NCBI GenBank assembly: GCA_016208495.1 | Contig: JACQXX010000088.1 | Span: 1 to 64,000, forward strand | DNA from: Acidobacteriota bacterium | Lineage (GTDB): Bacteria > Acidobacteriota > Blastocatellia > Chloracidobacteriales > Chloracidobacteriaceae | Direction of reading: 5' to 3' | DNA: 64,000 nucleotides | In this document: piece by piece, positions 11,973 to 14,668 of the stretch | How the letters are laid out: each line of letters begins with the position of its first letter | How positions within the stretch are numbered: the first letter of the stretch is position 1 | The notes under the pieces: model-generated | The model's input: only the letters and a program-made list of their open reading frames with translations | What the model was told of the DNA's origin: nothing | The model's database searches: none | Program-made: the position numbers and the translations under genes

Positions 11973-12320
11973 CGGGTTCCGGGTTCCGGGTTTTCGAACT
12001 GATTACCTTTCCGTTTTTTCTATCGTTTCTGTCCTTTTCCTACTCTCCTCCCTCATCCCCATAAGCGCCAGCCTTGAGCCCTCCTCCTCAACTATCTTCA
12101 CTTTCAGCGTGAAGAACCACTTTGTTTGCACTCAACAAGCGTGATATTTTAAGCTCTCATCGCACAGGGAACACAAACGAATCTTTTTTTCCACCACGCT
12201 ACTAATTTCGAAGGATGAGTTTTGAATGATGAAACAGCGAACCATTTGATACTCAATCAGATGGCTTCTTCATAATTCATAATTCGGAATTCATAATTTT
12301 ATCGAGCGCAGCCGCATCGC
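11973..12320. other. Spacer before the IscB locus
   Basis: No gene is seen. It begins with three copies of ggttccgg after the HDAC stop and ends in an AT-rich stretch with near-repeats of aattcataattc (about 12270-12298). If the omega RNA begins near 12320, the guide would be read from the last 15-20 nt of this segment, but the exact left boundary cannot be set by eye. Confidence 0.5.
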
Positions 12321-12660
12321 CAACTGGTTGTCAACTCCCCGGCCCTCAAGGGCCAGGTTTGAGTCGTGCCAAGGCCCGACGCCACGCTTGGAGTGGCCGA
12401 AATGTTTTGGTCTGGTTCAAGCCTCGGTTGACCAGACCCCCTGGCGAAATCCAGGGAACCGATAGGGAAGAAATTAGGTACCGGCGAATGCCACCTCAGT
12501 CCGCCGCTCTACGGTGACGTGTTAAAAGGGACGGGAGGGAGTTCCAGTGCGCGTCACGTCAAACCTTCCCATATCCGGTCGAGAGGAGGACGGATTCAAC
12601 CAATGGTCACAGTTGGTTGATACGCATACCTCTCCACAAGGAGAAGAGAGAACATTTTTC
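12321..12660 (+). ncRNA. Candidate omega RNA (guide scaffold) of IscB
   Basis: About 340 nt directly upstream of iscB lack an ORF but hold a string of stable hairpins: GGCCC-TCAA-GGGCC at 12341-12354, GGTCTGG (12409-12415) with CCAGACC (12432-12438), CCCTGG-cgaaat-CCAGGG at 12439-12456, gacgtg with cacgtc (about 12517 and 12555), and CAACCAA (12597-12603) with TTGGTTG (12613-12619). Omega RNAs of characterised IscBs occupy exactly this place, 200-400 nt upstream and co-oriented, with the guide at their 5' end. Structure and position are seen; function is inferred. Confidence 0.65.
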
Positions 12661-12662
12661 TT

Positions 12663-13931
12663 ATGTTCGTTTTTGTCTATGTGTTGAATTGTGATGGGAA
12701 ACCGTTGATGCCGACGTCGCCGGCCAAGGCGAGGTTGTTACTCAAAGAGGGGAAGGCGAAAGTGGTTCGGAAAACACCGTTCACGATCAAACTGCGGTTT
12801 GGTTCATCGGGATACAAGCAAGAGGTTGTGGCTGGGATGGACACGGGAAGCACCAGGGTGGGAACGGCGGCGGTGGCAAACGGGAACGTGGTCTACCAGG
12901 CGGAAGTCACCGTGCGTACTGATGTTTCGCGCAAGATGGAACAACGAAAGATGTACCGCCGCAGCCGAAAAACACGCTATCGCCAGGCGAGATTTGAGAA
13001 TCGGGGAGCATCGCGCCGCAAAGGCCGGTTGCCGCCGTCAATCCAAAGCAAAGTCGAGTCGCACCTGCGGGAACGCCGACAAATTGAATCGATCTTGCCG
13101 GTCACGCGTTGGAAAGTTGAATTGGCTGCCTTTGATATTCACAAACTGGTCAACCCGGAGGTGGCCGGAGTTGCCTATCAAACCGGACCGCTCAAAGACT
13201 GGTACAACACCAAAGCGTATGTGCTGCACCGTGATGGACATCGCTGCCAAAGCGGACAAAAGATCCAGCACAGCGTCAAACTCAATGTCCATCACGTCCA
13301 GTTCAAAAGCCGCCAGGGTGGCAACCGGCCTGAGAATCTCCTGACCTTGTGTCTGACCTGCCACACGGATTTGCACGACGGAAAGTTTGAAATCAAACCC
13401 AGGCGAAATGTCACCAAACCAGCCACCGAAGTCAGTGTGATTGCCGCCCAACTCAAGCAGTCGGATTGGGAATTTGAACCGACTTTCGGCTCCGAAACCA
13501 AATACAAGCGGGAGCAGTTCCTCAAGTTACCGAAGTCTCACACCACCGATGCGATGGCCATTTGTTGTGAGGACGGCGAAGTGGTCGAAGTCGGGAAGGA
13601 AAATGTGTACCTCAAACGTCATGTCAACCAGGGTGACTATCAGCAAACCACCGGCCAACACAGCCAGAAACGGATTCCAACCGGCAAGCTGTTTGGACTC
13701 CGCAAGTTTGATTTGATTCAAACCATCAAAGGAACCGGGTTTGTCACCGGCAAGCGCCGGACCGGATATTTTGCATTGGGCGCGATTGACGGCTCTCCAT
13801 TGACTGGCAGCGTCAACATTAAAACCAACTGTGTCCGGTTGAGGGCCAGAACCACAACCTTAGTTCAAAGCAGGAGCGGCGTTTCCTCCCGGCCCAGCAA
13901 AGGCCGGGTCTCCACGCCGAAGATAGGATGA
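12663..13931 (+). CDS. iscB: IscB RNA-guided nuclease (PLMP-RuvC-HNH)
   Basis: This 422-residue protein shows the full IscB order. An N-terminal PLMP domain has the name-giving Pro14-Leu-Met-Pro17. RuvC-I has Asp60 (GMDTGSTRVG). An Arg-rich bridge helix covers about 90-125. RuvC-II has Glu153 (VELAAFD). The HNH insert (about 184-240) has His210-His211. RuvC-III has His293 and Asp296 (KSHTTDAMAI), followed by a C-terminal target-interaction region (about 335-400, GLRKFDLIQT and GFVTGKRRTGYFALG). RuvC catalytic residues and the HNH His are intact, so it may be active. One zinc-ribbon cysteine is missing: Cys195-Gln-Ser-Gly in place of CxxC, against the intact Cys230-x-x-Cys233. The last 25 residues are translated from the element's right-end hairpin. 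Its stop overlaps the ATG of the sigma factor gene (ATGA). Confidence 0.92.
   Translation: MFVFVYVLNCDGKPLMPTSPAKARLLLKEGKAKVVRKTPFTIKLRFGSSGYKQEVVAGMDTGSTRVGTAAVANGNVVYQAEVTVRTDVSRKMEQRKMYRRSRKTRYRQARFENRGASRRKGRLPPSIQSKVESHLRERRQIESILPVTRWKVELAAFDIHKLVNPEVAGVAYQTGPLKDWYNTKAYVLHRDGHRCQSGQKIQHSVKLNVHHVQFKSRQGGNRPENLLTLCLTCHTDLHDGKFEIKPRRNVTKPATEVSVIAAQLKQSDWEFEPTFGSETKYKREQFLKLPKSHTTDAMAICCEDGEVVEVGKENVYLKRHVNQGDYQQTTGQHSQKRIPTGKLFGLRKFDLIQTIKGTGFVTGKRRTGYFALGAIDGSPLTGSVNIKTNCVRLRARTTTLVQSRSGVSSRPSKGRVSTPKIG
13877..13919 (+). repeat. Right-end hairpin of the IscB element
   Basis: The arms CGGCGT (13877-13882) and ACGCCG (13914-13919) enclose an inner stem CCCGGCC (13888-13894) and GGCCGGG (13902-13908), with ttcct and tctcc bulges between. 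Bulged hairpins with cctcc / ggg-tctcc sequences are typical of right ends of IscB and TnpB elements. It lies inside the 3' end of the iscB reading frame. Confidence 0.65.
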
Positions 13932-14668
13932 ACGAGAATCTCAATGAGGATGTGAAACCCCCGGTTTCGGCTGAACCCGAGCCGGGGGCTGAGCCAGAAC
14001 CGGAAGCCGAATCAGGAATTGATCCTGAATTGGATGCTGTGTCTGCATTGGCAGCGAAAATTGAAGCTGATACCGAGCCTCTTCCTCCAAGCACTAACCC
14101 AAAGGGAGACCAGGATCTGGTACTGCGCTGCCGGGCTGGGGATGCGGCTGCCTGGGAAGGGCTGGTCCGGCTATATTCCCGACGCATCTACAATCTGGCC
14201 TACCGGTTTGTCAGCCGCCACGAACAGGCTGAAGATCTGACCCAGGATGTGTTTATGCGGATTTACAAATCGCTCGAACAGTACAACCCGGAAATGGGCG
14301 ATTTGAGCAACTGGTTGATGCGTCTGGCCCGCAATCTGATTATTGATGATTATCGCCGCCGCCAACGTCAGCCACTTGATGGTGGTGATGATTTAGAAGA
14401 CCACACCCATTACCTGCGCAGCCGAACCGACAATCCCCACCATACTATTGAACGCAAAGAACGCCGACTTCAGGTCTTTGACGCCATCAATAAGCTCTCG
14501 CCTGACTTGCGCCAGTGCGTCATCATGCGTGACATTGATGAACTGACCTATCAGGAAATTGTAGACCGGTTGCAAATCCCAGAAGGAACCGTCAAATCGC
14601 GAATCAATCGGGGACGGATTGAGCTGGCAAAAGTACTCCGGCGAATGAAAGTCGTGAGCATTGATTGA
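13928..14668 (+). CDS. ECF-type RNA polymerase sigma factor
   Basis: This 246-residue sigma-70 family protein has an acidic, proline-rich N-terminal extension (about 1-55, PEPGAEPEPEAES) before the domain pair. Sigma region 2 spans about 60-140 (CRAGDAAAWEGLVRLY, EQAEDLTQDVFMRIYKSL, NLIIDDYRRRQ). Region 4 spans about 185-240 (LSPDLRQCVIMRDIDELTYQEI, IPEGTVKSRINRGR). No anti-sigma factor gene is next to it. The ATG overlaps the iscB stop by 4 nt, and the ribosome site is weak (gatagg), so translation may be coupled to iscB or the natural start may have been altered by the insertion. The acidic extension is not part of the ECF core. Confidence 0.9.
   Translation: MNENLNEDVKPPVSAEPEPGAEPEPEAESGIDPELDAVSALAAKIEADTEPLPPSTNPKGDQDLVLRCRAGDAAAWEGLVRLYSRRIYNLAYRFVSRHEQAEDLTQDVFMRIYKSLEQYNPEMGDLSNWLMRLARNLIIDDYRRRQRQPLDGGDDLEDHTHYLRSRTDNPHHTIERKERRLQVFDAINKLSPDLRQCVIMRDIDELTYQEIVDRLQIPEGTVKSRINRGRIELAKVLRRMKVVSID

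What the first reader, a model, noticed from the sequence alone, without database searches (positions are those of the whole stretch)
12300..13931. Compact IscB locus with omega-RNA-like leader and intact RuvC/HNH residues
Seen: a 340-nt hairpin-rich region directly upstream of an IscB frame with PLMP, RuvC-I Asp60, Glu153, HNH His210-211, RuvC-III His293/Asp296 and a target-interaction C-terminus. Known: IscB is an RNA-guided nuclease whose omega RNA sits upstream, guide at its 5' end. Inferred: a possibly functional, transposase-free RNA-guided nuclease in an acidobacterium.
Basis: partly seen in the sequence, partly recalled or inferred. Interest (0 to 1): 0.82.

Follow-up and report, generated by a model that had tools for sequence, protein, structure and literature searches.

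The report
IscB transposon family at start codons
The locus is an intact RNA-guided nuclease (IscB) transposon, one of 17 related elements in its genome, and about half of those sit exactly in front of a host gene's start codon, so that the element itself has probably become the gene's leader.

Summary
The finding is real. The frame is a 422-aa IscB (Pfam RRXRR, 2.7e-59) with a HEARO/omega-RNA hit directly upstream (RF02033, 90.4 bits, cut-off 83). Four intact copies show dN/dS 0.14-0.19. Seventeen HEARO elements in the genome (5 with iscB, one of those broken; 12 short) fix the ends: 12330-13927, no transposase inside. All 17 are followed by ATGAA; in the four intact copies iscB's stop codon is the TGA of that target. 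In 9 of 17 the ATG opens a long host frame (window: ECF sigma factor; another copy: gatB). Relatives in Methanosarcina (57-62% identical) do the same at leuD, NMD3 and others; 25 of 30 Methanosarcina genomes have the leuD site uninterrupted, showing clean insertion before the ATG. Control: elements aimed at GTGA precede long frames in 2 of 48. The right end reads AGGAG, hairpin, 8 nt, ATG, which suggests a portable ribosome-binding site; that step is inferred, and some results speak against it. IscB, omega-RNA, ORF-less copies and (recalled) an ATGA/GTGA target are known; I found start-codon landing in none of seven searches of open papers. New variant of a known kind.

The parts
12330..13927 (+). 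the whole transposon, 1598 bp; left end GTCAAC, right end GAAGATAGG
   Evidence: ends read from 17 elements of the same genome; no empty site for this copy itself was found
12314..12329 (+). presumed guide: the 16 nt of host flank left of the omega-RNA (length recalled from IscB work)
   Evidence: position relative to the left end; use as guide inferred
12330..12591 (+). HEARO / omega-RNA
   Evidence: RF02033, 90.4 bits, full model 1-211
12663..13931 (+). iscB, 422 aa; the stop TGA (13929-13931) is supplied by the target ATGA
13872..13876 (+). AGGAG, candidate Shine-Dalgarno at the foot of the right-end hairpin
   Evidence: function inferred
13877..13919 (+). right-end hairpin (outer stem CGGCGT/ACGCCG)
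   Evidence: fold z -2.99 for 13858-13945
13928..13931 (+). target ATGA: start codon of the host gene, overlaps iscB's stop codon; presumed target-adjacent motif (TAM)
   Evidence: ATGAA follows 17 of 17 elements
13928..14668 (+). host gene: ECF-type sigma factor, 246 aa
   Evidence: Pfam Sigma70_r2 2.5e-21 and Sigma70_r4_2 1e-15; orthologues in 10 of 10 genomes of the family

Best explanation
A complete IscB transposon of IS200/IS605 style without a transposase of its own. Shown: its ends, the omega-RNA, an iscB under purifying selection, and insertion directly 5' of ATGAA, often exactly at a host start codon. Inferred from published IscB/TnpB work (recalled): a Y1 transposase acting in trans moves it as single-stranded DNA; the host flank left of the omega-RNA serves as guide; when the element is lost, IscB cuts the re-formed guide+ATGA site, and repair from another copy restores it. 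Inferred here: because the guide is host sequence, the promoter of the omega-RNA must lie outside the element, so a landing between a host leader and its start codon supplies that promoter, and a target (leader plus start codon) that the host cannot freely mutate. The host gene stays translated because the right end brings its own Shine-Dalgarno (AGGAG, hairpin, 8 nt, ATG) and, in copies with iscB, because ribosomes that stop at TGA can restart at the overlapping ATG.
For: Omega-RNA and IscB. dN/dS 0.135-0.187 over 6 pairs of 4 intact copies. Ends and ATGAA in 17 of 17. Start codons: 9 of 17 own elements, 8 of 9 products with Pfam domains; p 5e-4 against non-genic ATGAA sites. Type C of Methanosarcina: 9 of 17, 8 with Pfam domains, p 1e-5. 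GTGA-aimed types: 2 of 48, their background. Empty leuD site spanned in 25 of 30 Methanosarcina genomes; empty alkA-ogt site in a Pseudoalteromonas plasmid. NCBI-annotated genes start at the last base of iscB or its remnant in 3 records, 2 distinct sites. Shine-Dalgarno, hairpin, 7-8 nt, ATG: own copies (GGAG in 14 of 17), L058, Pseudoalteromonas.
Against: 8 of 17 own elements are not at start codons. In the own genome GGAG does not separate start sites (8 of 9) from others (6 of 8). Archaeal type D keeps GAGG but has 0 of 6 start sites. In the window fold the ATG is partly paired with upstream bases. The window's own left flank shows no Shine-Dalgarno; a match of 4 or more bases is in 5 of the 9 start-site flanks. 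Gene calls are crude, so the background is approximate. No expression data, no empty site for this copy.
Confidence: 0.7

Rival explanations
1. An ordinary IscB element with an ATGA target. Start codons look favoured only because insertions inside genes are purged, and a start codon is one of the few ATGA places where an insertion leaves the protein whole. No portable ribosome-binding site evolved; translation recovers by coupling or by chance.
For: Target ATGAA in 17 of 17. If start codons made up 28% instead of 16% of non-genic ATGAA sites, p for 9 of 17 would be only 0.03. GGAG is not tied to start sites in the own genome; type D has 0 of 6.
Against: 9 of 17 exceeds the 16% measured for non-genic sites, and type C 9 of 17 exceeds 10%. 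An insertion between Shine-Dalgarno and ATG should harm genes such as gatB, so some replacement is needed.
Confidence: 0.4
2. The window copy is a decaying, inactive remnant.
For: One of 5 iscB copies (C56) is broken; the first HNH CxxC lacks its second cysteine.
Against: Open over 422 codons with catalytic residues kept and dN/dS near 0.14; omega-RNA above its cut-off.
Confidence: 0.08
3. The element has been taken over by the host as a regulator of the sigma factor (leader RNA control), not as a mobile element.
For: It sits directly before the sigma-factor start codon.
Against: 16 other elements with unrelated flanks in the same genome look like plain spread.
Confidence: 0.05

Closest known systems
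IscB / HEARO (RF02033) RNA-guided nuclease elements
   Same: RRXRR/RuvC/HNH protein, PLMP start, HEARO RNA directly upstream; ORF-less copies and an ATGA/GTGA target motif are known for HEARO as I recall
   Different: insertion exactly at start codons, stop codon of iscB supplied by the target, Shine-Dalgarno-like sequence in the right end
IS200/IS605 insertion sequences (TnpA/TnpB)
   Same: subterminal hairpin, no target duplication in the empty sites seen, fixed motif at one end
   Different: no transposase in the element; none with the same ends found
IStrons (group I intron plus IS605-type element; PMC4227781, abstract and passages seen)
   Same: a mobile element that makes its insertion harmless to the host gene
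   Different: IStrons splice out of the mRNA; here the element would land at the start codon and bring a ribosome-binding site

Membership tests
IscB / HEARO | HEARO/omega-RNA directly upstream of the ORF | tested here: met
   RF02033 90.4 bits at 12330-12591
IscB / HEARO | PLMP, RRXRR/RuvC and HNH with catalytic residues | tested here: met
   one zinc-finger cysteine missing
IscB / HEARO | defined element ends with omega-RNA at the left end and a fixed motif right of the element | tested here: met
   17 of 17 followed by ATGAA
IscB / HEARO | RNA-guided DNA cleavage | not testable with these tools
   no experiment possible
IS200/IS605 | Y1 transposase TnpA in the element | tested here: not met
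   only iscB lies between the ends; 9 Y1 matches elsewhere in the genome, ends not shared with the 8 loci read. I therefore call it IS200/IS605-like, not a member
IS200/IS605 | insertion without target duplication | tested here: inconclusive
   clean in the relatives at leuD and alkA-ogt; no empty site for the window copy

The most novel reading that the evidence does not exclude
A lineage of IscB elements in bacteria and archaea has made the host start codon its landing site: the target motif doubles as start codon and as (part of) iscB's stop, the guide doubles as the host's leader, the host promoter drives the omega-RNA, and the right end carries a portable ribosome-binding site (Shine-Dalgarno, hairpin, start codon), so that even essential genes can be occupied and the homing target cannot mutate away.
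Probability: 0.45. Interest if true: 0.7.

Novelty: new variant of a known kind. Interest (0 to 1): 0.52.

Why it matters
If right, it answers where the omega-RNA promoter comes from when the guide is host sequence, and shows a second way, besides the self-splicing of IStrons, for an RNA-guided transposon to occupy a gene without killing it. The homing target would be locked by selection on the host's own translation start. It is testable with reporters in laboratory E. coli and with RNA-seq. The closest relatives found for this bacterial IscB are in Methanosarcina and a euryarchaeal MAG (57-62% identity) and on gammaproteobacterial plasmids (53-60%), while IscBs in the same family of genomes are 28-33% identical, which points to horizontal spread.

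Tried and rejected
Chance hairpins rather than an omega-RNA: rejected. A single domesticated locus: rejected by 17 copies. A transposase with the same ends: own elements match none of 14 Y1 loci from four genomes; archaeal elements match one of them (L159), which holds a neighbouring HEARO element. HEARO is rare in the phylum: 6 of 396 genomes, with stricter filters; 4 of 10 in the family. Empty site of the window copy: the sigma gene has orthologues in 10 of 10 family genomes, but the deacetylase gene left of the element was not found beside the 7 orthologues read, so no empty site.

Right end as a marker of start sites in type C: the form GAGG(G/T)..TTT occurs in 10 of 17, 9 of them on start sites, and in none of the 7 others (p 4e-4). 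I chose that form after seeing the data, 4 of the 7 others still keep GAGG, and the copies are related, so I count it as weak.

Rows treated apart: G402_C51_180464 passes the length test (99 codons) but has no Pfam domain and its ATG seems to lie inside an upstream gene (read by eye), so it is not in the 9 (10 with it). The thymidylate-kinase site (type F) has another in-frame ATG 13 codons upstream, so its start is doubtful. Sites left out because the right end could not be read: 6 of 45 hits of G401, 2 of 6 of G402, 0 of 5 of G403; 29 of 63 (2 more were read by hand). Not fetched: 11 of 54 listed hits of G411 (where more candidates were left unscored), 2 of 11 of G413, 2 of 6 of G410, the 1 of G417 and the 2 of G405. 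Shewanella plasmid (L154): right end not resolved. Of 76 plasmid records with a match, 4 were opened; the 16 phage records were not.

Literature: seven answered searches list no title or abstract start on start-codon insertion, and the passages read do not mention it. The first HEARO paper and the first omega-RNA paper are not held; what I say of them is recalled.

Full report
What is there. The window holds a 422-codon IscB frame at 12663-13931 with Pfam RRXRR (2.7e-59) and HNH (3.6e-7) and solved IscB structures as relatives (9 distinct PDB sequences, best 3.5e-35). Directly upstream the HEARO covariance model matches end to end at 12330-12591 with 90.4 bits against a cut-off of 83.

One of seventeen. 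A protein search of the window's own genome finds 4 further IscB copies at 84-93% identity, one with an internal stop, and two short matches that lie in the right ends of ORF-less elements. The HEARO model finds 17 places. Reading all 17 with flanks shows clean ends: left GTCAA in 16 and GCCAA in one; right GAAGATAGG or a close variant; lengths 448-455 bp for 12 elements without iscB and 1594-1608 bp for 5 with it. The left flanks look unrelated to each other. ATGAA follows 17 of 17. In the 4 intact iscB copies the stop codon is the TGA of that ATGA; in the broken copy C56 the main frame does not reach it. Among the 4 intact copies dN/dS is 0.135-0.187 (6 pairs), so the protein is under purifying selection.

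No transposase in cis. Only iscB lies between the ends. The genome has 9 Y1-transposase matches, 7 of them above 76 bits with no stop inside. None of the 8 own loci read carries sequence like these ends. Movement in trans is therefore an inference.

Start codons. In 9 of 17 elements the ATG after the element opens a frame of 213-1008 codons, and in the empty site that frame is closed within 18 codons upstream. Pfam supports 8 of the 9 products: GatB, patatin, HAD hydrolase, histidine kinase, NHL/TIG protein, S41 peptidase, MerR regulator and the sigma factor of the window; the ninth (C79) has no Pfam match. The GatB and MerR profiles match from near their first positions, so those starts are sound. 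Five of the nine left flanks hold a Shine-Dalgarno match of 4 or more bases (C19, C103, C2, C148, C119), which the element has cut away from its ATG. The window's flank has none. Orthologues of the sigma factor exist in 10 of 10 genomes of the family; one aligns from residue 1, and in the seven read the frame starts near the same place.

More than chance? With a simple gene caller on own-genome flanks, 378 ATGAA sites fall into 261 genic, 98 intergenic and 19 start sites. Against all sites the expectation is 5-7%; against non-genic sites 16%, which gives p = 5e-4 for 9 of 17, and 0.03 if the share were 28%. The caller is crude (coding fraction 0.80).

Relatives. The one scan of genome contigs gave 12 loci, all archaeal, 57-62% identical: Methanosarcina and a euryarchaeal MAG; 11 of 12 carry HEARO. 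One Methanosarcina MAG (G401) holds 45 HEARO hits. By right end they fall into types. Type C, which includes relatives of the window's IscB, ends TGAGGGTTT or a variant before ATGA. Over three genomes 9 of 17 lie on start codons by my count (10 by the length test alone), 8 with Pfam domains: PEBP, amino oxidase, CheR, aconitase C-terminal (LeuD-like), TldD, ADP-dependent kinase, NMD3, polyprenyl synthase. The background for ATGA in that genome is about 10% of non-genic sites (some fetched stretches overlap and count twice); p = 1e-5. Other types: ATGA-flanked F 1 of 4 (thymidylate kinase, start doubtful), D 0 of 6, B flanked by ATGA or ATAA 0 of 3, the CTGA type 0 of 4. Types that use GTGA: 2 of 48, their background being 6% of non-genic sites. 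These 48 come from the same genus and serve as a natural control; own and type C together (18 of 34) differ from them with p = 4e-7.

Empty sites. The joined leuD site of G401 was searched in 30 Methanosarcina genomes: in 25 the match runs across the junction (best 97% over 255 bases, G413), in 2 (G401, G411) it is split by the element, in 2 only part of the gene matches, in 1 nothing. The 12 loci aligned show exact insertion without duplication; the closest reads GGTGATTTC-ATGAAAGG, GGTGA being a likely archaeal Shine-Dalgarno. On a Pseudoalteromonas plasmid the element sits between alkA and ogt; a related plasmid has the uninterrupted site (75% identical over the whole query), with the two genes overlapping by one base in NCBI's annotation. 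There the first G of the element completes a TAG stop for alkA. In three Pseudoalteromonas records (two distinct sites) the annotated host gene starts at the last base of iscB or of its remnant.

A portable ribosome-binding site? In the window the right end reads AGGAG (13872-13876), hairpin (13877-13919), AAGATAGG, ATG. The same order is in the own copies (GGAG in 14 of 17), in a genome of the same order (L058, a 123-codon frame without Pfam match) and in the Pseudoalteromonas elements (GGAGG, 7 nt); the hairpin is predicted in all three bacterial forms folded. A hairpin that brings a Shine-Dalgarno near its start codon is known from phage T4 gene 38 (recalled). In type C, GAGGG lies after the hairpin. 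The GTGA types A and B show no such sequence there. Against it: GGAG does not separate start sites (8 of 9) from others (6 of 8) in the own genome; type D has GAGG without start sites; in the window fold the ATG is partly paired, and the type C piece folds no better than shuffles. I hold this step at about even odds.

How it would work. The guide is host sequence, hence the omega-RNA promoter must be outside. A landing in a host leader, right before the start codon, gives transcription through guide, omega-RNA, iscB and the host gene. Loss of the element re-forms leader+ATGA, which is guide+TAM for IscB; cutting and repair from another copy restores the element. ORF-less copies would be served in trans by the intact iscB copies. 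These steps follow from published IscB/TnpB work (recalled) and were not tested.

What is known. PMC9755519 (section 9 and passages read) treats IscB and HEARO as one family, reports few TnpA neighbours and HEARO hits in 65% of 5' regions. PMC13180657 (passages) gives NTAAA and NWRGNA as TAMs of other IscBs, unlike ATGA. PMC4227781 (abstract and passages) describes IStrons as harmless by splicing. The first HEARO and omega-RNA papers are not held; that HEARO integrates before ATGA or GTGA is my recollection.

Verdict. The start-codon landing with a stop codon supplied by the target, seen in bacteria and archaea and not above background in GTGA-aimed sister types, is the new part.

Noticed in passing
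L036 and L038 (own copies C2, C85); L156 versus L155: The right-end hairpin, imperfect in most copies, has become a perfect palindrome in two own copies and in one of two Pseudoalteromonas records at the same site, as if one arm had been copied from the other.
   Followed up: no
G411 (Methanosarcina genome): At least 54 HEARO hits in one 4.1-Mb genome, with 157 first-look candidates of which only 54 were scored; most of those read are short and GTGA-flanked.
   Followed up: partly
G402:C33 near 3515: Another HEARO element, inserted before GTGA, sits some 44 bases upstream of the leuD start in G402, so the same leader was hit twice independently in the genus.
   Followed up: no
L156, 1-2400: In Pseudoalteromonas sp. 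KG3 a group II intron lies where the left end of the IscB element should be; no HEARO hit there.
   Followed up: no
own contig C88, 73757-74024 (outside the window): A second, ORF-less HEARO element lies on the window's own contig, about 60 kb downstream.
   Followed up: yes
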